In this document: in pieces, positions 1 to 10,092 of the stretch
How the letters are laid out: each line of letters opens with the position of its first letter
Numbering within the stretch: the first letter of the stretch is position 1
From: Actinomycetota bacterium
Lineage (GTDB): Bacteria > Actinomycetota > Thermoleophilia > Solirubrobacterales > Solirubrobacteraceae
DNA length: 64,000 bases
Direction: 5' to 3'
NCBI GenBank assembly: GCA_018268595.1
Contig: JAFDWH010000014.1
Span: 124,001-188,000 of the forward strand
Position numbers and translations under genes: made by a program
Notes under the pieces: generated by a model
The model's database searches: none
Told to the model about the DNA's origin: nothing
Seen by the model: only the letters and a program-made list of their open reading frames with translations

Positions 1-242
1 CACCACTCGCAGTTCGGGCACTGGATCGTGACCGCCCACTCGCCCGGGCCGGCGTGCTCCCACGCGACGGGCGCGACCAGCTCCGAGCGGCACGCGGGAC
101 AGACGTGCAGGCCCGCCTCGCGTCGGTCGGCCTCGTGCGGCGCGCCCCGCGTCCCGGCGCCCTCGACGAACAGCACGTCGACGAACTGCCCGGTCGGGAG
201 CGTCACGCGGCGGGTGGAGCGGTGGTCGGCGGGGTGCTTCAC
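1..242 (-). CDS. Zinc-ribbon protein, C-terminus beyond window edge
   Basis: The reverse strand reads from a GTG at 242 without a stop to the window edge, giving about 80 residues. It contains two CxxC-type knuckles: CPACRSEL near residue 48, and CPNCEW near residue 77 at the cut end. These four cysteines could bind one zinc ion. The first 45 residues resemble no family I know. The gene is divergent from tatA with about 125 bases between them. Function is unknown; nucleic-acid or protein binding by a zinc ribbon is a guess. Confidence 0.6.
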   Translation of the reverse strand, partial: MKHPADHRSTRRVTLPTGQFVDVLFVEGAGTRGAPHEADRREAGLHVCPACRSELVAPVAWEHAGPGEWAVTIQCPNCEW

Positions 243-366
243 AGCCTCAGGATCGGCCGCCCCGCGCCGGAACTTGAGCGGACCTCCACCTATCTGACAC
301 CGCGGAACGTCCGGATGCCGGCGGCGATCGGGCGCTACGCTGTGCGGACCCCATCGGAGGCTTTTC

Positions 367-618
367 GTGTTCTCTCAGATTGGTCCCCTCGAGATCGTCC
401 TGGTCATCGTCGTGCTGCTGGTGATCTTCGGCCCCAAGCGGCTCCCGTCGCTCGGCAAGTCGCTCGGCACCGGCATGCGCGAGTTCAAGGACTCGATCAC
501 CGGCGAGGACAAGCAGCGCGAGCAGGCTGACGCGCCCGACCGACCGGCGCTCACGCAGGCGCAGGCCGACGCCGCCGCCACGCCGGCGGCCGAGTCCGCG
601 CCCGAGCAGCGCGGCTGA
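367..618 (+). CDS. tatA: Sec-independent translocase subunit TatA
   Basis: TatA of 83 residues, which oligomerises in the membrane to form the pore of the twin-arginine export pathway. Residues 2-22 are one hydrophobic helix (PLEIVLVIVVLLVIFGPKR). The FGPKRLPSLGKSLG hinge and amphipathic helix are the family hallmark, followed by an acidic and Ala-rich tail. The start is GTG at 367, with GGAGG just upstream. A possible -10 TACGCT lies at 336-341, leaving a short leader. tatC follows after 18 bases, so the two are very likely cotranscribed. Confidence 0.95.
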   Translation: MFSQIGPLEIVLVIVVLLVIFGPKRLPSLGKSLGTGMREFKDSITGEDKQREQADAPDRPALTQAQADAAATPAAESAPEQRG

Positions 619-636
619 CGCGCACCCGCAGGATCG

Positions 637-1641
637 ATGGCGACCGCGCTCAAGCCGATCGGCCACGACGAGCGGCTGACGATCGTCGATCACCTCGACG
701 AGCTGCGCTCGCGGCTGATCGTGTGCGCGGTCACGCTCGGGATCGCGTTCGCCGTCTGCTTCTGGCAGAACGGCACGCTGCTCGACGTCCTCAACCAGCC
801 GTTGAAGGACAGCACGCCGACCGTCCAGCACAGCCAGGGCAACGGCCGCCTTGCACAGGTCGCTGCGGCCCAGGCGGAGGTCCAGAGAGGCTTCGCGGCG
901 ACCGCCAGAGCGTTCGCGGCGCTCGCGACCGCGCCGAACCTGACGGCGTCGCAGAGAGCCGCCGTCGCCGCGGCGGCTGCGCAGGCGGCGAGCGCGGCCA
1001 GAGCGCTGCCGAAGACGATCCCGCCGCGCGTACCGATCACGACCGGCGTCGGCGAGCCGTTCACGGTGACGCTCACGATCGCGGCGTACTTCGCGCTGCT
1101 GTTCTCGCTGCCGATCCTGCTCTACCAGGCGTACGCGTTCGTGCTGCCCGCGTTCAGCCCGCGCGAGCGGCGGCTCGCGCTGCCGATGATGCTGATGGTG
1201 CCGGTCCTGTTCCTCGTCGGCGTCGCGTTCGGCTACTTCCTCGTGCTGCCGCCCGCGATCTCGTTCCTGCAGAACTTCAACGACACGAACTTCGACGTGC
1301 TGATCCAGGCGAAGGACTACTACCGCTTCTCGGTCCTCGCGCTGCTGTCGACAGGGCTCGTGTTCCAGCTCCCGGTCGGGCTGCTCGCGCTCAACGCGGT
1401 CGGGATCGTGAGCGCTCACCAGCTGCGCGCGAGCTGGCGTTACGCGATCGTCGCGATCGCCGTGATCGCGGCGATCATGCCGGGCGTCGACCCGGTCACG
1501 ACGGTGATCCTGATGGTACCGCTGCTCGGCCTCTACCTGCTGAGTATTCTGCTCTTGACGATCGCCGACCGGCGACGGGGGAGCCGCGGCGACACCGACG
1601 CCTTCGCGTTCCACAGCGACGACGACTTCGAGGAAAGCTGA
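637..1641 (+). CDS. tatC: Sec-independent translocase subunit TatC with enlarged first loop
   Basis: TatC receptor of the Tat pathway, 334 residues, longer than the usual 240-270. The conserved HLDELRSRL entry lies near residues 19-27. The first membrane helix spans about 27-43 and the GEPFTVTL motif is near 139. Five further hydrophobic helices and a charged C-terminal tail follow. The extra length sits between helices 1 and 2: residues about 58-130 form an Ala/Gln-rich stretch predicted to be helical and extracytoplasmic. Four of its five arginines are AGA (886, 907, 955, 1000), while arginines elsewhere in the gene are CGN. It sits between tatA and a TPR gene in one operon. Confidence 0.95.
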   Translation: MATALKPIGHDERLTIVDHLDELRSRLIVCAVTLGIAFAVCFWQNGTLLDVLNQPLKDSTPTVQHSQGNGRLAQVAAAQAEVQRGFAATARAFAALATAPNLTASQRAAVAAAAAQAASAARALPKTIPPRVPITTGVGEPFTVTLTIAAYFALLFSLPILLYQAYAFVLPAFSPRERRLALPMMLMVPVLFLVGVAFGYFLVLPPAISFLQNFNDTNFDVLIQAKDYYRFSVLALLSTGLVFQLPVGLLALNAVGIVSAHQLRASWRYAIVAIAVIAAIMPGVDPVTTVILMVPLLGLYLLSILLLTIADRRRGSRGDTDAFAFHSDDDFEES

Positions 1642-1645
1642 GCCG

Positions 1646-2392
1646 ATGCTGTTCGACCTGCAGAGCCGCGGCCGCAGAAACTTCGTCCGCGTGATCTACC
1701 TGGGCCTCGCCATACTCATGGGCGGCGGCCTGCTGCTGTTCGGGATCGGCACGGGGTCGGGCGGCGGCGGCTTCCTCGACATCTTCGGCAAGGGCGGCTC
1801 CAGCACGAGCGCGCAGGTCAGCACGCTCGAGAAGCGGGCGGACAGAGAGGTCCGGCTGCACCCGCAGAGCGCGCAGGCGTGGGCCGACCTGACCCGTGCG
1901 CGCTACCAGACGGCCGGGCAGGGGAGCAACTACGACGCTGCCGCGAACCAGAGGCAGGGCCAGTTCACGAAGACCGGCCTCGCGAAGCTCGGGCAGGCGT
2001 CGACCGCCTGGCAGAGATACCTCAAGCTCCAGTCGCGCCACCCGGACGCGACGCTCGCGCGCCTGATGGCGACGGCCTACTCGGAAGCCGGCCTCAACCA
2101 GCCGGCGGACGCGGCGGAAGCGATGGAGATCGTGACGGAGCAGCAGCCGTCGGCGGCGGCCTACTCGACGCTCGCGCAGTACGCATACCTCGCCCAGCAG
2201 TACCGCAAGGGTGACCTCGCCTCCGCGAGGGCGGTGCAGCTCGCGCCGTCGGCGCAGCAGAGACTCGTGAGAGCGCAGCTCGCCAACTTCAGGAGACAAG
2301 TGGTCGCGCAGGCGGGCGAAAGAGCGATCCAGTCCGGCAGAGCCGGGGCCGGCAAGGCGGCGCCGCGAGGCAGAACGCAGGGCGTCGGCTGA
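1646..2392 (+). CDS. Membrane-anchored TPR-like protein
   Basis: A 248-residue protein starting 4 bases after tatC, so probably in the tat operon. Residues 12-34 are a single membrane segment (YLGLAILMGGGLLLFGIG), followed by a Gly/Ser linker. Residues 55-200 resemble tetratricopeptide helical pairs, with motifs such as AQAWADLTRARY and YSTLAQYAYLAQQY. This fits an anchored scaffold facing outward or inward. Arginine is coded mostly by AGA or AGG, unusual for this GC content. The partner is unknown; a role in secretion quality control is only suggested by position. Confidence 0.8.
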   Translation: MLFDLQSRGRRNFVRVIYLGLAILMGGGLLLFGIGTGSGGGGFLDIFGKGGSSTSAQVSTLEKRADREVRLHPQSAQAWADLTRARYQTAGQGSNYDAAANQRQGQFTKTGLAKLGQASTAWQRYLKLQSRHPDATLARLMATAYSEAGLNQPADAAEAMEIVTEQQPSAAAYSTLAQYAYLAQQYRKGDLASARAVQLAPSAQQRLVRAQLANFRRQVVAQAGERAIQSGRAGAGKAAPRGRTQGVG

Positions 2393-2492
2393 CGCCTGTC
2401 GCGGCGCGGCCTTCGCCGTGCCGTCGCGCAGCAGATCCGACGGTCACCGGCTACCATGCCTGGTCGGCTCATCACGGTGAGCCGGCATCCCC

Positions 2493-2565
<73 letters not shown>

Positions 2566-2665
2566 TAGGTCAGACCTGCGACAGTCGCTCGCGGGCACCG
2601 GATCGTGCGGGCCGCCGCCGCGAGTGCTTCCAGGGGCGCGGGTGCTGTTGCGCTCGCGCGGTCGC

Positions 2666-2998
2666 TCATCGCGCCCGTTCGCTGAACCGGAGCGCCTCGA
2701 CTTCGCGGAGCTGAGCCGCCGCGGATTTCGCTGCCGCGGCGCGCTGGGGACACATGGCGACGAGTGCGCGGTGCGAATGGCGCTCGACGCGCTGGCAGCT
2801 CCGGCGCAGGGCGATGAGCGCGCTCGGCGGTATCGCGGCAGCGTCGCGACTTCCCGGCTCGGGTTGGGCGTGGAGCCGCACGGCCAGCGTCTCTAGGTAC
2901 GCCATCGCGGCTGCGATCTCGCCGAGCACGTCGGCGACCTGAGCCGCCGAGCCGTCTAGCGGCCTGCGCGAAGCGTGGCGATCCTGCGGCGGCGGCAT
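2666..2998 (-). CDS. Hypothetical protein, 110 residues
   Basis: I do not recognise this protein. The ATG at 2998 was chosen because GGAGA precedes it at a good distance and the predicted protein becomes amphipathic from there. Residues 15-45 (AAQVADVLGEIAAAMAYLETL) and 60-100 look like helices rich in Ala, Arg and Glu. There are two Cys and two adjacent His. It faces away from the padR cassette, sharing a roughly 350-base spacer. Coding status is moderately likely. Confidence 0.45.
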   Translation of the reverse strand: MPPPQDRHASRRPLDGSAAQVADVLGEIAAAMAYLETLAVRLHAQPEPGSRDAAAIPPSALIALRRSCQRVERHSHRALVAMCPQRAAAAKSAAAQLREVEALRFSERAR

Positions 2999-3212
2999 GA
3001 CTGTTCTCCGCGGCGTTCCGGCTGAAGGGTGCGCAAGACCCCGACGACGTGTACCGGGGGGTACGCCGCCGGGGCCCCGCACCCTCTCGCGCGTCCCGAC
3101 GCGCCCCGCTCCGTGGGGGAGGGAGCGAAGCGCGGCGCCCGCGATGCGTGCGGGCCGGTGGGGACGGGGAGGCTCACGGGGCCATCCTCGCTTCACCACC
3201 GCCTATAGGTCT
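2999..3212. other. Non-coding spacer upstream of the padR cassette
   Basis: Together with the leader to 3351 this is the longest gene-free stretch of the window, about 350 bases. I see no convincing gene in it. It holds a small hairpin candidate, GTACC-GGGG-GGTAC (3051-3064), and the ribosome-binding region of the leftward gene at its left end. The right end leads into the operator and promoter of padR. Confidence 0.4.
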
Positions 3213-3267
3213 AGTAACCGGGTTACTGCTTAGCAGCTTGAATAGTGGAACTGCCGAGCGTTAGGCT
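3213..3267 (+). promoter_or_regulatory. Putative padR promoter with overlapping palindromic operators
   Basis: Two perfect inverted repeats overlap: AGTAACC-G-GGTTACT (3213-3227) and CTGCT-T-AGCAG (3226-3236). They adjoin a promoter candidate, TTGAAT (3238-3243), an 18-base spacer, then TAGGCT (3262-3267). The arrangement fits autorepression by the PadR protein encoded next. Confidence 0.5.
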
Positions 3268-3351
3268 TGCCCCGGAAACGTCGGCGTTCTTCTGCGACGC
3301 TCGGGCGTGGATGGGAAGGCTTCCGGGCCGGCGGGAGGAGCGAGCATCGTC

Positions 3352-3933
3352 ATGGTGGGAAATGCGGAGCTGAAGCCGAGCGCTCGGCTGGCAGTCCTGG
3401 GGTTGCTGCTGGAGCGCCCCGGTTGGGGCTACGAGCTGGTGACGCGCTTCGACCGCACCTTCGGGGAGCCGTACGACTGGCGGATCACGTCTGCGGCGAT
3501 CTACCAGGCGTTGAGATACCTCGAACGCACCGGTCTGATCGTGCCGCATGTGGACGAAGGCGAGGGCGCGCCGGAGGAGCCCGGTCAGCGGGGCATGCGC
3601 CAGCCGTATCGCGTGTCCGGGCTGGGGGCTCGGATGATGCGGGAGTGGCTGGCGGCGCCGATGTCGAGCAGCCCGTCGCAGGAGGAGGTGCTGATCCGCT
3701 TGCAGTTCCGCGGTGCCGACGACGAGACGCTGCGAGCGATGCTCAAGCGCCACGCAGAAGCCTGTCTCGCCGAGCTGGAGCGCATCGCAGGCGTCCCCGC
3801 TCGCACGCGCATGGAACGGCTGGTGAAGGAGGAGCGGCGGCTGGTCGTGCAGGCGCGCTTGTCGTGGGTCGACTTCGCTCGTGCCGAGCTGCGCGGACCC
3901 GATGACGCCCGCATACGACCGATCGAGCGATGA
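3352..3933 (+). CDS. PadR family transcriptional regulator
   Basis: A 193-residue PadR-type repressor. The N-terminal winged helix covers residues about 5-90: LGLLLERPGWGYELVTRFD, then AIYQALRYLERTGLI and a wing with RQPYRVSGLG. The C-terminal half is helical (MLKRHAEACLAELERI), typical of PadR dimerisation. The ATG at 3352 was preferred because GGGAGGAG precedes it; a GTG at 3307 has no such site. The gene overlaps the next ABC ATPase by 4 bases, so it heads the operon. PadR proteins often respond to small hydrophobic or cationic ligands and control exporters, which fits here. Confidence 0.9.
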   Translation: MVGNAELKPSARLAVLGLLLERPGWGYELVTRFDRTFGEPYDWRITSAAIYQALRYLERTGLIVPHVDEGEGAPEEPGQRGMRQPYRVSGLGARMMREWLAAPMSSSPSQEEVLIRLQFRGADDETLRAMLKRHAEACLAELERIAGVPARTRMERLVKEERRLVVQARLSWVDFARAELRGPDDARIRPIER

Positions 3934-4652
3934 GCGTCCTCTCGCTGGAGAACGTCAGCAAGCGCTACCGGCGAGGGCACCGCGAGCTCGTCGCGCTGCG
4001 CAGCGTCTCGCTGGAGGTCGAGAACGGCGAGGTCGTGTGCGTCTCCGGTGGTCGCGCTTCCGGCCGTACGACGCTGCTGCGCATCGTCGCAGGGAGCGAG
4101 CGGCCCGACGAGGGGCACGTTCGCTTCGCGGGAACGGACCTCGCGCGAGCAAGCGGCGAGCTGAGGCGGCAGATCGCCGTCTGCAATCTGCGCTTCCTGC
4201 CGGCGCACGGCCGCGACGCGTGCGACCACGTGGCGATGCCGCTGCGGGCGACCCGCGTCTCAGACGACGAGGCAGGATTGCTTGCGCACCGCGCGTTGGA
4301 GCGCGTGGGCGCCGGCGACGTCGCGCTGACGCCACCGCACGAGTGGATTCCGTCTGAGGCGGTTCGTGTGTCGCTTGCGCGAGCGATCGTGCGCGAGCCG
4401 CGGCTCCTGATCTTCGACGAGCCGACAAACGGCGTCGATCCGACCGAGCGCGACGACCTGCTGTTGTTGATCCAACGGCTCGCGCACGAGTCGGGGATCG
4501 CGACGCTGCTCACGGCGGGCGACACGGCGTCGGTCACGGGCGCCGACCGCGTGATGCGCCTGAGCGACGGCGAGCTGTTGGGTCGGCCCCCGCGCGCTGC
4601 GGCCGAGGTGGTCGAGTTGCGCCGGCCGTCCGCGTCGGAGTCCACGCCGTGA
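3930..4652 (+). CDS. ABC transporter ATPase with degenerate nucleotide-site motifs
   Basis: A 240-residue ABC ATPase of the LolD/MacB-like group by overall pattern. Walker B (LLIFDEPTNGVD) is intact. Two key motifs are not: the Walker A reads GRASGRTT, with Arg in place of the ATP-binding Lys, and the LSGGQ signature region reads WIPSEAVRVSLARAI. The protein should bind or hydrolyse ATP poorly on its own. It overlaps padR and the second, canonical ATPase by 4 bases each. I infer an asymmetric ATPase pair with one degenerate site, as in some exporters. Loss of function without partnership is the alternative. Confidence 0.88.
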   Translation: MSVLSLENVSKRYRRGHRELVALRSVSLEVENGEVVCVSGGRASGRTTLLRIVAGSERPDEGHVRFAGTDLARASGELRRQIAVCNLRFLPAHGRDACDHVAMPLRATRVSDDEAGLLAHRALERVGAGDVALTPPHEWIPSEAVRVSLARAIVREPRLLIFDEPTNGVDPTERDDLLLLIQRLAHESGIATLLTAGDTASVTGADRVMRLSDGELLGRPPRAAAEVVELRRPSASESTP

Positions 4653-5383
4653 GCGACGGCCTGGAGCTGCGCGAGATCGTCAAGCACTATCGCGGCGGCG
4701 AGGTCGTGCGCGCCGTGGATGGCGTATCCCTGGGCATCGAGCCGGGGGAGCTGGTCGCGCTGTACGGGCCGAGCGGCTCGGGCAAGACGACGTTGCTGTC
4801 GATCGCGGGCGCCTTCCTCGCGCCTGACGCCGGCACGGTGCGGTTCGCCGGCCGCGACGTGACGGCGTTCTCAGCGTCGGAGCGCGCGCTGTATCAGCGG
4901 CGAGACGTCGGTCTCGTCCAGCAGAGCTATCACCTGAGCGCAGGATCGACGGCGATCGACAACGTGGCCGTGAAGCTGCTGGCGGATCGCGTGCCGCTCG
5001 CGGAGGCGCGACACCGCGTGATCCCCTGGCTGGAGCGGGTCGGACTCGGCGAGCGGCTGAGGTATACGCCCGACCGGCTGTCCGGCGGCGAGGGGCAGCG
5101 CGTCGCGCTCGCGCGAGCCCTCGTGAACGAGCCGCGGCTCGTGCTGGCGGACGAGCCGACCGCGCACCTGGATCGGCGGCGCAGTCGCGACATGCTCGCG
5201 CTGCTCGCGAAGATCGCCCACGAACGATCGGTCGCGATCCTCGTCGTCACGCACGACCCGGAGGCGGCGGCCGTGGCGGACCGCACGCACACGCTCAGCG
5301 ACGGCCGGCTGACATCGGGCGTCCCCCGTGACCTGCTCGCCGTGCCCGAAGGTGCGGCGACGCTGGGTGGTGCGCAGCCGTGA
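4649..5383 (+). CDS. ABC transporter ATPase (LolD/MacB type)
   Basis: A canonical 244-residue ABC ATPase. Walker A is GPSGSGKTT near residue 40, the Q loop follows, the signature is LSGGEGQRVALARAL near 144, Walker B is LVLADEP, and an H-loop histidine sits in VVTHDPEA. The start is GTG at 4649, overlapping the previous gene by 4 bases. The end overlaps the permease start. With the degenerate ATPase it would power the permease encoded next. Confidence 0.93.
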   Translation: MSDGLELREIVKHYRGGEVVRAVDGVSLGIEPGELVALYGPSGSGKTTLLSIAGAFLAPDAGTVRFAGRDVTAFSASERALYQRRDVGLVQQSYHLSAGSTAIDNVAVKLLADRVPLAEARHRVIPWLERVGLGERLRYTPDRLSGGEGQRVALARALVNEPRLVLADEPTAHLDRRRSRDMLALLAKIAHERSVAILVVTHDPEAAAVADRTHTLSDGRLTSGVPRDLLAVPEGAATLGGAQP

Positions 5384-7932
5384 AGCTCCACGCGCTGCTG
5401 CACTTCTACCGCCAGCGGGTGAGAACGCATCCGGCGCAGGAGCTGTTGGCCGGCGCCGGCATCGCCATCGGCGTGGCGCTCGTGTTCGCCGTGGTCGTCG
5501 CGAACACCAGCATCACGACCTCCGCGAGCGAGATCGCGCACGGGATCGCCGGCAACGCCCGGCTCCAGCTCGACGCGCGCAGCGAGCATGGCTTCGACGC
5601 CGGCCTGCTGCGCGTCGTGCGATCTCTGCCGAGCGTTCGACAGGCAGCAGGGATCTTCGAGCAGCGCGCGATCCTCCAGGGCACCCGTCACACGACGAGC
5701 GTCGCGCTCATCGGCGTGGACGCTAGCATCGCGCTGCTGGGCGGTCCGCTGACGCAGGACTTCGGCTCGCAGCGCGAGGGCCTGATCTTCCGAGACGGAC
5801 TGCTCGTGCCCAGCGGCCTCGCGAGCGCAGTGGGCCTGACTGCCGGCGGGCCGGGCGAGCCGCGGACGACGGTCCTTCGCCTTCGCGGCAGAGCCGACCG
5901 CGTGCCCGTCGCGGCTGTGATCGGGTCGGACGTGATCGGCAAGCTGTCGGGCTCGCTCGTCGTCGTCGGCCGGCGCGACTACGTCAACAGGCTCGCCGCG
6001 CTGCCGGATCGACTCACGCGCATCTTCGTGGTGCCCCGCCCAGGGCAGGACGAGCAAGCTCGGCGGGAGCTTGAGGCGATGGCGAACGGCCGGCTCACGG
6101 TCGCGCCCGTCGGCCGCGAGAGCGCAATCCTCACGCTGGCGTCGGCGCCGAACGACCAATCGACCTCCCTGTTCGCTGCGATCAGCGCGCTCGTCGGCCT
6201 GCTGCTCGCGTTCAACGCGATGCTGCTCACCGTGCCGGAGCGCCGCCGCGCCGTCGCCGAGTTCCGCACCCACGGCTACACCCCGCGTCAGGTCGTCCTC
6301 ATGGCCGCCTTCGACGCGCTCCTGCTCGGCACGGTCGCATCGGCGGCCGGGCTCGGCGTCGGGTTCGTGCTGTCGCGCACGGCGTTCCACGGCCTGCCGA
6401 CGTACTTGGCGTTCGCCTTTCCGTTCGGCGTCGAGCAGACCGTTCCGGTCAGCACGATCGCGCTGTGCTTCGCGGGTGGCGTGGTCGCCACCTTCCTTGC
6501 CGGCGCCCAACCGCTGCTCGACCTGCGCCCCGATCGGGCGCCCGACGACGTGTACCGCGAGGAGGGTGAGCCCGGACAAGCGCTCAACGCGGCTCTACGT
6601 CGCCGTATGGGCCTCGCGTCGCTGGCGATGCTCGCACTCACGACCGTCGTCGTGTCGATCAAGCCGGCTGCGACGATCCTCGGCGTCGCGCTCCTGGCGA
6701 CGAGCATGCTGCTCGCACTCCCCGCGCTGCTCGATGTCGTGAAGCACGCTCTGGAGCGCGTCGCGCGGCGACGGGCACGACTGAACATGCTCATCGTCGC
6801 CGTGATGGCCGTGCGCGCCGCACGGGTCCGCGCCGTCGCGCTTGCCGCGACCGGTGCGGTCGCCGTGTTCGGCAGCATCTCGATCGAGGGCGCCAAGCGC
6901 GACCTCGTGAACGGCCTGCACCGCAGCTTCGTGGAGACCGTCGGCATCGCCGACCTGTGGGTGACGACCGGCGGCGACGACCTGACGACCGAGAACTTCA
7001 TCCCAGGCGACACGGAGGCGCGCATCCGTCGCGTACCCGGTGTTCAAGCGGTGCGCCCCTACTACGGCGGCCTGCTCGACATCGGCGATCGGCGTGTCTG
7101 GATCGTCGCCCGCGAGCGAAGCGACCGGCAGATGCTCCCGGCCGGTCAGCTTGACACGGGCAACGCGCGACAAGCCGCCACGGCGTTGCGACGCGGCGGC
7201 GCCGTCGCCCTCTCGGCGCAGCTCGCCGCGGCGACGCACGTGCGCGTCGGGGACATGCTCACGATCCCGACGCCCACCGGCGATCACCGCTATCGCGTCG
7301 TCGCGACGCTCACCAACCTCGGCTGGGGACCAGGCGCGCTGATCGTCAACGCCGCCGACTACCGCCGCGACTGGAACACGGACGATCCGACCGCGTTCGA
7401 GGTCGATGTCAGACCCGGCGTTTCACCGGCCGCCGCGAAGCCCGCGGTGCAGAGCGCGATCCCGCCGTCCGTCGCCCTCCAAGTGCAGACCGCGGCCGAG
7501 CGAGTGGCGCGCTACGACTTCCTGGCCGGCGAGGGCCTGCACCGCCTGACGCAAATCTCGCTGCTGCTGCTGATCTCGGCGGCGATCGCGCTCGCAGCCG
7601 CGACGATCGCCGCGATATGGCAACGGCGAGCGGCCTTCCTCGACTACCGATACCAGGGCTACGCGACGCGGCAATTGTGGAGCGCGCTCCTGATCGAGAG
7701 CAGCATCGTCCTCATCACGGGCTGCGCGCTCGGCGCCGCTGCGGGCCTCTACGGCCACCTGCTGCTGGGTCGCTGGCTGCGTCTCACCACCGGGTTCCCG
7801 GCACCGTTCGACCTGTCCCTCCTGGCCTCGATCGGGACGTTCGGCATCGTGGTCGCGGCCACCCTCCTCGCCATCGCGCCGTGGAGCTACCGAGCGGTGC
7901 GGACCCCACCGGGGCGCGCTGAGCTGAGCTGA
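5380..7932 (+). CDS. FtsX-like ABC transporter permease
   Basis: An 850-residue permease with duplicated FtsX/MacB architecture. A membrane helix lies near residues 20-40, followed by a large outer domain (about 45-255). A block of three or four helices (about 260-380) and a further pair (about 415-455) come next. A second anchor and outer domain (about 480-715) then precede a final three-helix block to 840. The C-terminal block carries the typical RRAAFLDYRYQGYATRQLW turn. Such proteins act by mechanotransmission, moving lipids, peptides or envelope components rather than forming a channel. It starts with GTG inside the stop of the ATPase gene. A terpene synthase follows after 42 bases. Confidence 0.92.
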   Translation: MKLHALLHFYRQRVRTHPAQELLAGAGIAIGVALVFAVVVANTSITTSASEIAHGIAGNARLQLDARSEHGFDAGLLRVVRSLPSVRQAAGIFEQRAILQGTRHTTSVALIGVDASIALLGGPLTQDFGSQREGLIFRDGLLVPSGLASAVGLTAGGPGEPRTTVLRLRGRADRVPVAAVIGSDVIGKLSGSLVVVGRRDYVNRLAALPDRLTRIFVVPRPGQDEQARRELEAMANGRLTVAPVGRESAILTLASAPNDQSTSLFAAISALVGLLLAFNAMLLTVPERRRAVAEFRTHGYTPRQVVLMAAFDALLLGTVASAAGLGVGFVLSRTAFHGLPTYLAFAFPFGVEQTVPVSTIALCFAGGVVATFLAGAQPLLDLRPDRAPDDVYREEGEPGQALNAALRRRMGLASLAMLALTTVVVSIKPAATILGVALLATSMLLALPALLDVVKHALERVARRRARLNMLIVAVMAVRAARVRAVALAATGAVAVFGSISIEGAKRDLVNGLHRSFVETVGIADLWVTTGGDDLTTENFIPGDTEARIRRVPGVQAVRPYYGGLLDIGDRRVWIVARERSDRQMLPAGQLDTGNARQAATALRRGGAVALSAQLAAATHVRVGDMLTIPTPTGDHRYRVVATLTNLGWGPGALIVNAADYRRDWNTDDPTAFEVDVRPGVSPAAAKPAVQSAIPPSVALQVQTAAERVARYDFLAGEGLHRLTQISLLLLISAAIALAAATIAAIWQRRAAFLDYRYQGYATRQLWSALLIESSIVLITGCALGAAAGLYGHLLLGRWLRLTTGFPAPFDLSLLASIGTFGIVVAATLLAIAPWSYRAVRTPPGRAELS

Positions 7933-7974
7933 CCGTCCACCCCGTGCCGGCGAGTACCGAGAGACTTGCCGGCA

Positions 7975-9066
7975 ATGGACGCGATTCGCACCCGGTCGCG
8001 CGGGCGCACGCTGCGCGACGCCCTGGCGCTTGTCGAAACGCTCGCCTGCTACTGGCTCACGATCTTCCCGCTGGCACGACGGGAGCTTCGCCGCTGGCAG
8101 GCGCGCGCGGCGACGATCCCGCAACCTGCGCTGCGCGAGATCGCGACACGAGCGCTCGAACAAGAGGGCCTCAACGCCGAGGGAGCCGCGCTGTTCGCGA
8201 TGCTGGCACCCGCCCGCCAGCGCACGGCCACGACCCGCCTGCTCATCGCCTACCAGGTGATGTACGACTACCTCGACGCGCTCACGGAGCAGCCAACCCC
8301 GGAGCCCGTGAGGAGCAGCCGACAGCTTCACCGCGCCTTGGTCACCGCGCTCGGGCAACCCGCGCCGGCTGACGGCTACTTCGTCCACCACCCGCTGCGC
8401 GAAGACGACGGCTATCTCGCCGAGCTGGCGGCGAGCTGCCGAGCGACCTTCCTGCGCCTACCCGGCGCGCCCGTCGCGGCGCCGCACGCCATCGCCGCGG
8501 CGATGCGGTCGGGCGAGGGACAGAGCCAGAGCCACGCCGCCGCGTTCACCGCGGACCACGACCTGATCCGCTGGGCCGAGCACGCGACGCCCGAAGGGCT
8601 CGACCTTCGCTGGTGGGAGACGGCCGCTGCCGCGGAGTCGTCGCTCGTCATCCACGCGCTGCTGGCGAGCGCCGCGCAGCCGCACATGACCGCCGCGCGC
8701 GCCGAGCGCGTCACCGCCGCGTACTGGCCGTGGATCGCCGGCCTGAATGCGCTCCTCGACGACCTCATCGACACGGCCGAGGATGCCGCCGAGGGCACGC
8801 ACAGCTACATCGCGCACTACGACAGTCCCACGCTCCTCGCGGGCCGCCTCGCGGCCTTCACGGCCGCGGCGAGTCGCGCGATCGATCGACTTCCGCTGCG
8901 GAGCCGGCACGCGGTGATCTTCGCGGCGATGACGAGCTACTACCTCGCCGCTCCGCAGGCGGCCGACGCCGCGATCGAGCCGTCGGCGCGAGCCGTCGCC
9001 GAGCATCTCGCGATGAACGTTCGGCCGCTGCTCGTGATGCTCCGGCTGCGCCGTCGTCTCACCTGA
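7975..9066 (+). CDS. YtpB-like (DUF2600) terpene synthase
   Basis: A 363-residue all-helical protein of the DUF2600 family, whose Bacillus member YtpB makes tetraprenyl-beta-curcumene from a long prenyl diphosphate. Candidate Mg-binding motifs are DYLDALTE (residues 98-105) and LLDDLIDTAED (260-270), followed by GTHSYIAHY. The length matches the family. The ATG at 7975 was chosen; a TTG at 7966 is possible. It lies 42 bases after the permease gene on the same strand, so it is probably cotranscribed with padR and the ABC genes. The substrate cannot be told from sequence. Confidence 0.82.
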   Translation: MDAIRTRSRGRTLRDALALVETLACYWLTIFPLARRELRRWQARAATIPQPALREIATRALEQEGLNAEGAALFAMLAPARQRTATTRLLIAYQVMYDYLDALTEQPTPEPVRSSRQLHRALVTALGQPAPADGYFVHHPLREDDGYLAELAASCRATFLRLPGAPVAAPHAIAAAMRSGEGQSQSHAAAFTADHDLIRWAEHATPEGLDLRWWETAAAAESSLVIHALLASAAQPHMTAARAERVTAAYWPWIAGLNALLDDLIDTAEDAAEGTHSYIAHYDSPTLLAGRLAAFTAAASRAIDRLPLRSRHAVIFAAMTSYYLAAPQAADAAIEPSARAVAEHLAMNVRPLLVMLRLRRRLT

Positions 9067-9120: not shown

Positions 9121-9990
9121 TCAGCTCGCCTCGACGTGCTCGCGCTCGGCCGTGCTGGCGGCGGCGCGCTGCTCGTACGCGGCGCGGGCGCCGAGGTCGG
9201 CGTCGGCGAGGATCCGGTCGGTCTTCGCGCTGCGGCCGATCGCCTCCGCCACCCGCCGCGGCATCAGCGCCCCGAGCCGCACGCCGACGGCGATCCCCTT
9301 CGGCACGTAGACGTCGTGGCGCGGGCGCTCGAGCGCCGCGACGATCGCGTCCGCGACCTGCTCGGGCTCGACGGTCGCAGTCAGCCCGCGGCCGCTCACG
9401 AGCCCCGCGGCCAGCTCCGTGTTGACCGGGACCGGCATCACGACGCTCGTCTCGACGCCGCTGCCGCGGATCTCGCCGCGGATCGCCTCCGTGAGGCCGA
9501 CGACGGCGTGCTTCGTCGCGGAGTACGTCGCGCCGCCCGGGACGCCGGCCTTGCCCGCCGTCGAGGCGATGTTCACGAGGTGGCCGCGGCGGCGCGGCAG
9601 GAAGCGCTCCAGCGCGAGCTTCGAGCCATGGATCACGCCGTGCAGGTTGATGTCGACCTGGCGCGCCGCGACCGCGTCGCGCTCGTCCACGAAGCGGCCG
9701 AGCTGCATGATCCCGGCGTTGTTGACGAGCACGTCGAGCGGGCCGAGCCGGCGCTCCGTCTCGTCGAGGAAGCGCTCGAACGAGGCGCGGTCGGTCACGT
9801 CGAGCGGCAGCGCGACGGTGCCGCCGCCCAGCTCCGCGGCGGTCCGCTCGGCCAGCGCGACGTCGACGTCGCCGATCGCCACCTGTGCGCCCTTGCGCAC
9901 GAGCGCGGCCGCCGTGGCGCGCCCGATCCCGCGTGCGCCGCCCGTGATCGCGACGACCTTGCCGGTGAGCGACCGGGGCTGCTTGGGCAT
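9121..9990 (-). CDS. Short-chain dehydrogenase/reductase
   Basis: A classical SDR of 289 residues. The Rossmann glycine motif is TGGARGIG near residue 14, NNAG is near 85, the catalytic Ser lies in NIASTAGKAG, and YSATK gives the Tyr and Lys. The C-terminal extension (residues 225-289) resembles the actinobacterial SDRs often annotated as acyl-CoA or steroid reductases. The ATG at 9990 follows GGAGAG and was preferred to upstream starts, which give unstructured residues. It is convergent with the terpene synthase, with 54 bases between them. The substrate is unknown. Confidence 0.9.
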   Translation of the reverse strand: MPKQPRSLTGKVVAITGGARGIGRATAAALVRKGAQVAIGDVDVALAERTAAELGGGTVALPLDVTDRASFERFLDETERRLGPLDVLVNNAGIMQLGRFVDERDAVAARQVDINLHGVIHGSKLALERFLPRRRGHLVNIASTAGKAGVPGGATYSATKHAVVGLTEAIRGEIRGSGVETSVVMPVPVNTELAAGLVSGRGLTATVEPEQVADAIVAALERPRHDVYVPKGIAVGVRLGALMPRRVAEAIGRSAKTDRILADADLGARAAYEQRAAASTAEREHVEAS

Positions 9991-10086
9991 GGGGCTCTCC
10001 TTCGGACGGCGGCTGGTGGCGGACGGACTGGCTGAGCAGCCAGTCTGCCGCGCCGCGCGGCCGAGCGCAAGCGCGGCACGCGCGAC

Positions 10087-10092
10087 TAGCAT
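10087..10092 (+). promoter_or_regulatory. Leaderless -10 element of the aminotransferase gene
   Basis: TAGCAT ends 8 bases before the ATG at 10101, leaving no room for a ribosome-binding site. The same GACTAGCAT word stands before the L,D-transpeptidase start at 35613. No good -35 is seen. Confidence 0.45.

What the first reader, a model, noticed from the sequence alone, without database searches (positions are those of the whole stretch)
3213..9066. PadR-controlled ABC exporter coupled to a terpene synthase
padR, two ABC ATPases, a duplicated FtsX-type permease and a DUF2600 terpene synthase lie head to tail with 4-base overlaps, then a 42-base gap, behind one operator-promoter. MacB/Lol-type exporters move lipids or hydrophobic compounds, and YtpB-type enzymes make terpenes from long prenyl diphosphates. 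A plausible unit makes and exports, or places in the envelope, a terpenoid under PadR sensing. I know of no described system with this set.
Basis: inference. Interest (0 to 1): 0.75.

Follow-up and report, generated by a model that had tools for sequence, protein, structure and literature searches.

The report
Ten-copy terpene synthase–exporter cassette
In the soil bacterium Conexibacter and some relatives, a gene for a terpene-making enzyme almost always sits beside the same lipid-exporter genes, and this genome carries ten diverged copies of the pair, which suggests a family of lipid make-and-move machines that I could not find described.

Summary
padR, two ABC ATPases, a 10-TM FtsX-type permease and a DUF2600 gene lie head to tail at 3352-9066, with 4-base overlaps and one 42-base gap. 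The genome (Conexibacter) holds ten DUF2600 genes, and all ten lie in this cassette. Across the family, 89 of 93 resolvable DUF2600 genes adjoin the permease, even where the strand is flipped. DUF2600 genes from Bacillota and Deltaproteobacteria lack the cassette. The enzyme matches the class IB terpene synthase BalTS in fold (TM 0.86-0.91), with the key metal-binding acids conserved in nearly all 47 copies. The permease resembles E. coli YbbP. One ATPase is canonical and the other degenerate in every cassette, so the transporter is probably an asymmetric heterodimer. Independent support comes from cis-prenyltransferases: the only three extra copies in the genus lie in or near DUF2600 cassettes, and in one relative they replace DUF2600. 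Some relatives add a P450. A 17-bp palindrome upstream of padR recurs before sister cassettes. Best reading: diversified, locally regulated units that make a long-chain terpenoid and move it through or out of the membrane. Linkage and enzyme class are shown. Product, export step and PadR control are inferred. No description was found in the open-access library searched.

The parts
3212..3228 (.). putative operator, palindrome TAGTAACCGGGTTACTG, variant of TAGT-N9-ACTA
   Evidence: same dyad with at most one mismatch 139-161 bp before the PadR domain in L011, L052, L053, L059: 5 of the 13 occurrences in 547 kb
3352..3933 (+). padR, 193 aa (or from GTG 3307, 208 aa)
   Evidence: Pfam PadR E 4.9e-6, 26.9 bits against cut-off 27
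3930..4652 (+). ABC1: degenerate ATPase (Walker A GGRASGRTT 4047-4073, no LSGGQ: PSEAV near 4347-4367, no H-switch His: TAGD 4506-4523)
4649..5383 (+). ABC2: canonical MacB/LolD-type ATPase (GSGKTT, Q-loop, LSGGE, DEP, H-switch TH all present)
5380..7932 (+). Type VII permease, 850 aa, two FtsX halves with two extracytoplasmic domains, about 10 TM helices
   Evidence: Pfam FtsX x2, MacB_PCD x2; AF2 pLDDT 84.5; best match E. coli YbbP
7933..7974 (+). 42-base spacer without terminator-like or promoter-like site
7975..9066 (+). DUF2600 class IB terpene synthase, 363 aa (or from TTG 7966, 366 aa)
   Evidence: Pfam 259 bits; family profile to BalTS 5yo8 E 1.5e-80; AF2 pLDDT 93.9, Foldseek 6loo TM 0.86/0.91
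8266..8289 (+). first Asp-rich motif DYLDALTE
   Evidence: D2 and E invariant, D1 42 of 47 cassettes; aligned to DYLDNLCD of BalTS
8752..8784 (+). second Asp-rich motif LLDDLIDTAED
   Evidence: D2 and D3 invariant in 47 cassettes; aligned to LLDYFIDQEED of BalTS

Best explanation
The cassette is one functional unit. A PadR-type regulator acting at its own palindromic operator controls a Type VII (MacB/FtsX/YbbP-like) ABC machine made of one double-length permease and two unequal ATPases, of which only ABC2 looks able to complete a normal ATP cycle. It also controls a class IB terpene synthase. The synthase ionises a long polyprenyl diphosphate, most likely the C35 chain also used for MK-7 menaquinone, and forms a very hydrophobic terpene at the membrane. 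The permease lifts that terpenoid out of the inner leaflet and flips or exports it to the outer face, the wall or the medium. In some relatives a dedicated cis-prenyltransferase supplies or replaces the enzyme step and a P450 tailors the product. Ten diverged copies in one genome suggest ten products or ten inducing signals. Shown: gene set, conservation, enzyme fold and motifs, permease fold, asymmetric ATPases. Inferred: substrate length, product, direction of transport, PadR ligand.
For: Ten of ten DUF2600 genes in the genome lie in the cassette. In the family 89 of 93 resolvable genes do, including cases with the synthase on the opposite strand. DUF2600 loci from Bacillota and Deltaproteobacteria have no such cassette. 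BalTS fold with conserved Asp motifs. The three extra cis-prenyltransferases of the genus are all in or near DUF2600 cassettes, one overlapping the permease stop by 4 bases; cis-prenyltransferase replaces DUF2600 in G548. P450 beside the synthase in some relatives. Permease and synthase distances correlate (Mantel r 0.66 over 47 cassettes, 0.88 within C. arvalis). The permease's best structural match, YbbP, is proposed to extract hydrophobic molecules for a lipid hydrolase (PMC12646458). MK-7(H4) in C. woesei implies a C35 precursor (PMC3035278). Shared operator.
Against: No product or transport was measured. Permease cassettes also exist without DUF2600 (3 of 13 in this genome), so the cargo need not be its product. 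Within this genome synthase and permease distances correlate only weakly (r 0.36, p 0.025), and synthase with ATPases not significantly, so partners may have been reshuffled. Some synthases are on the opposite strand. The canonical motif DYLDNLxD is altered to DYLDxxxE.
Confidence: 0.55

Rival explanations
1. Cell-envelope protection module of the BceAB kind: the transporter relieves antibiotics that bind undecaprenyl- or other polyprenyl-pyrophosphates, and the synthase and cis-prenyltransferase tune the pool of prenyl diphosphates at the membrane.
For: BceB is the next full-length fold after YbbP. In B. subtilis loss of ytpB with lowered MenA activity accumulates heptaprenyl diphosphate and was reported to sensitise to bacitracin (discussed in PMC7038271). 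cis-Prenyltransferases make the undecaprenyl carrier. PadR regulators often control drug exporters (general knowledge).
Against: No two-component system was seen beside the cassettes. The permease has two extracytoplasmic domains as in YbbP, not the single large one of BceB (BceB domain layout from general knowledge). A P450 beside some copies is odd for resistance. Heptaprenyl diphosphate did not inhibit BceAB (PMC7038271).
Confidence: 0.2
2. Coregulation only: the exporter moves an unrelated compound and the synthase independently changes membrane properties under the same PadR signal.
For: Permeases of the same subfamily occur without DUF2600, some with a secreted protein pair; weak within-genome co-divergence.
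Against: Linkage survives strand inversion and holds in 89 of 93 cases over highly diverged copies; the replacement partner is again an isoprenoid enzyme.
Confidence: 0.18
3. The DUF2600 proteins have lost catalysis and act as prenyl-lipid-binding subunits or sensors of the transporter.
For: Strong divergence from YtpB (about 25% identity to BalTS) and an altered first motif.
Against: Metal-binding Asp/Glu positions invariant or nearly so in 47 copies.
Confidence: 0.05

Closest known systems
B. subtilis YtpB / B. alcalophilus BalTS, class IB large-terpene synthases (5YO8, 6LOO)
   Same: Fold, length, two Asp-rich motifs at the same places
   Different: Motif 1 ends in Glu (DYLDxxxE, not DYLDNLxD); embedded in a PadR-ABC-ABC-FtsX cassette; up to ten copies per genome; YtpB-type loci examined from Bacillota have no such neighbours
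E. [quoted passage not shown]
   Same: Full-length permease fold with two extracytoplasmic domains; transporter encoded beside a lipid-acting enzyme; [quoted passage not shown]
   Different: Enzyme is a terpene synthase instead of a periplasmic hydrolase; two unequal ATPases instead of two YbbA copies; PadR control
BceAB antimicrobial-peptide transporters
   Same: Type VII ABC, one long permease chain, link to prenyl pyrophosphates
   Different: No sensor kinase seen, two extracytoplasmic domains, degenerate second ATPase, biosynthetic enzymes alongside
MacB and LolCDE
   Same: ATPase and FtsX/MacB_PCD domain families
   Different: Scores far below the NCBIfam equivalog cut-offs (LolD 190 vs 308; MacB 176 vs 966); permease halves fused to each other, ATPases separate

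Membership tests
Class IB (YtpB/BalTS) terpene synthase | all-alpha class IB fold | tested here: met
   AF2 pLDDT 93.9; 6loo TM 0.86/0.91, 5yo8 0.84/0.88
Class IB (YtpB/BalTS) terpene synthase | first Asp-rich motif DYLDNLxD | tested here: inconclusive
   DYLDALTE: acidic positions kept (D2 and last acid invariant in 47, D1 42 of 47), last acid is Glu
Class IB (YtpB/BalTS) terpene synthase | second Asp-rich motif DY(F/L/W)IDxxED | tested here: met
   LLDDLIDTAED here; the second and third Asp invariant in 47, aligned to BalTS
Class IB (YtpB/BalTS) terpene synthase | terpene formation from C25-C35 prenyl diphosphate | not testable with these tools
   needs enzyme assay
Type VII ABC transporter | FtsX/MacB permease with extracytoplasmic domain plus MacB/LolD-like ATPase | tested here: met
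YbbAP-TesA | permease with two extracytoplasmic domains in one chain | tested here: met
   9ge6 TM 0.61/0.64, Z 21-27 over about 695 residues
YbbAP-TesA | one ATPase gene used twice, SGNH hydrolase TesA partner | tested here: not met
   two different ATPase genes; adjacent enzyme is DUF2600
BceAB | partner sensor kinase and response regulator, single large extracellular domain | tested here: not met
   PadR instead, none seen in the neighbourhood; two extracytoplasmic domains in the model
PadR regulator | PadR winged helix above Pfam cut-off | tested here: inconclusive
   E 4.9e-6, 26.9 bits vs 27; another PadR beside a relative's cassette scores 51.9 (L178)

The most novel reading that the evidence does not exclude
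A previously undescribed class of isoprenoid make-and-export machines confined, as far as tested, to Solirubrobacteraceae: an asymmetric YbbP-like ABC exporter is paired with an exchangeable prenyl-diphosphate enzyme (terpene synthase, cis-prenyltransferase or both), and the whole module has been multiplied and diversified into up to ten locally regulated terpenoid systems per genome.
Probability: 0.45. Interest if true: 0.85.

Novelty: new variant of a known kind. Interest (0 to 1): 0.72.

Why it matters
Few dedicated exporters of bacterial terpenes are known. A cassette that pairs a C25-C35-type terpene synthase with a YbbP-like transporter, in up to ten versions per genome, offers a direct way to test how very hydrophobic terpenes leave the membrane where they are made. 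It also points to a large unexplored set of class IB terpene synthases in a soil lineage poor in characterised natural products, and to an asymmetric ATPase pair in a transporter class usually driven by two equal ATPases.

Tried and rejected
Upstream polyprenyl synthase as part of the unit: the PF00348 gene just before the window (G000:C5:122948) belongs to a tatA-tatC-TPR block kept in three other Conexibacter genomes, so it is a housekeeping neighbour. Squalene-hopene-type cyclase as a constant second step (the SqhC route of Bacillus): absent from this genome and from C. woesei, strong hits in only two of seven. One operator for all ten copies: the TAGT-N9-ACTA dyad is found only before a subset and general dyad searches gave only GC-rich noise. 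Recent duplication of the ten copies: identities of 35-52% (permease) and 27-47% (synthase) say they are old. First alignment A1 was too diverse for a genome-contig scan; A2 was used. Secreted pair SP1/SP2: no Pfam or PDB relative beyond weak Dirigent and pyocyanin-demethylase hints. Literature: no paper in the open library joins terpene synthase, PadR, ABC transporter and FtsX, and DUF2600 appears in one unrelated paper; subscription journals and preprints are not covered.

Full report
Observation. The five genes are present as described: padR (probably ATG 3352 to 3933), ABC1 (3930-4652), ABC2 (4649-5383), permease (5380-7932) and DUF2600 (ATG 7975 to 9066), with 4-base overlaps and a 42-base spacer. 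Domain assignments are PadR (E 4.9e-6), ABC_tran twice, FtsX and MacB_PCD twice each in one 850-residue chain, and DUF2600. The spacer has no terminator-like or promoter-like site.

Conservation. The genome is a Conexibacter (Solirubrobacteraceae; two genus relatives are C. arvalis, by its named contigs, and C. woesei, by its 6,359,369-base single contig, which fits my knowledge of that genome). It carries ten DUF2600 genes, and each of the ten sits beside ABC genes and a permease of one discrete subfamily that has 13 members in this genome. All seven genomes of the genus have DUF2600, one to ten copies, always beside the cassette. In the family, 25 of 146 genomes have it. By my count there are 97 distinct genes: 89 adjoin the permease, four do not (L166, L172, L173, and the fragment in L174), and four lie at contig ends. 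In 7 of the 72 matches linked by coordinates the synthase is on the opposite strand, so the pairing outlasts operon structure. In the wider phylum DUF2600 is rare (1 of 346 genomes sampled, this one). In Bacillota, Deltaproteobacteria and other loci fetched by similarity it occurs without these neighbours, as in two other genomes of the class.

The enzyme. A profile of 29 genus sequences matches only one solved protein, tetraprenyl-beta-curcumene synthase BalTS (5yo8, E 1.5e-80), and aligns both Asp-rich motifs. The AlphaFold model (pLDDT 93.9) matches 6loo and 5yo8 at TM 0.83-0.91, with ordinary class I terpene synthases far behind. In 47 cassettes the two central Asp of motifs 1 and 2, the last acid of motif 1 and the last Asp of motif 2 never vary. 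Motif 1 is DYLDxxxE rather than DYLDNLxD. Active class IB synthases are therefore very likely. C. woesei makes MK-7(H4) (PMC3035278), so a C35 prenyl diphosphate, the substrate of YtpB (PMC7839719), should be available. That step is inference.

The transporter. The permease model (pLDDT 84.5) has two extracytoplasmic domains and about ten membrane helices. Its best solved match over nearly the whole chain is E. coli YbbP (Foldseek E 2e-18; VIA Z 21-27 over about 695 residues), followed by BceB, MacB and LolE. [quoted passage not shown] ABC2 keeps the Walker A Lys, signature Ser and Gly, catalytic Glu and switch His in 47 of 47 cassettes and the Q-loop Gln in 45. ABC1 has Walker A Arg in 20, non-Ser at the signature in 21, Asp at the catalytic Glu in 20, and the switch His replaced in nearly all. 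An asymmetric ATPase pair on one fused permease is the natural reading.

Independent metabolic evidence. Every genome of the genus has one ordinary cis-prenyltransferase. The only three further copies in the genus lie in DUF2600 cassettes or within about 1.5 kb of one: L053, where it overlaps the permease stop by four bases with DUF2600 converging on it, L054, and L051. In the relative G548 three cassettes lack DUF2600 and carry a cis-prenyltransferase after the permease. Another cassette (L170) has both, plus a secreted protein pair, and is sister to the clade with either. Cytochrome P450 genes follow the synthase in several MAG cassettes, and one lies beside an extra permease in this genome. 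These neighbours point to isoprenoid chemistry without relying on the DUF2600 annotation.

Regulation and evolution. The palindrome at 3212-3228 belongs to a dyad TAGT-N9-ACTA found, with at most one mismatch, upstream of padR in five related cassettes; these are 5 of the 13 occurrences in 547 kb of cassette loci. Other copies have other sequences there, as expected if each copy answers its own signal. The copies are old (permease 35-52% identical within the genome). Permease and synthase distances correlate (Mantel r 0.66 overall, 0.88 in C. arvalis), but only weakly in this genome (0.36, p 0.025). Permease members without DUF2600 occur repeatedly in the tree.

Mechanism and verdict. Most likely the synthase makes a long-chain terpene at the membrane and the asymmetric Type VII transporter moves it outward, under local PadR control. 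I give 0.55 to the whole statement, about 0.95 to the unit being functional, and about 0.85 to the enzyme being an active terpene synthase. The main rival is an envelope-protection module acting on prenyl pyrophosphates, as proposed around BceAB (PMC7038271). No description of this set was found in the open-access library, which excludes most subscription journals.

Noticed in passing
L011:903-2232 (own genome) and L046, L055, L143, L145, L148, L149, L154-L159, L170, L171, L175, L176, L178, L182, L183: A pair of secreted proteins (about 165 and 280 aa, no Pfam family; the smaller with a weak Dirigent/barrel hint) recurs beside these permease cassettes, with and without DUF2600.
   Followed up: partly
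L184:5536-6867 and L009:470-2980: In the window's genome a P450 of the same family as in the MAG cassettes lies beside an extra permease, which neighbours the L009 DUF2600 cassette: a double cluster.
   Followed up: partly
L190:3177-7470 and L191:452-5027: Two further ABC-ABC-permease cassettes of the window's genome without DUF2600.
   Followed up: partly
L052:8712-9572: A YkuD L,D-transpeptidase lies between permease and synthase in one C. arvalis cassette.
   Followed up: no
window 1-3352: The cassette sits after tRNA-Lys (2493-2565) and a tatA-tatC-TPR block that is conserved in other Conexibacter genomes; the insertion may have used the tRNA region.
   Followed up: partly
L016, L017, L050, L051: Some cassettes have a third ATPase gene, in three of the four directly after padR on the opposite strand: a variant layout with three ATPases.
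   Followed up: no
window 9121-10092 (-): A short-chain dehydrogenase converges on the synthase; it was not tested as a tailoring enzyme.
   Followed up: no
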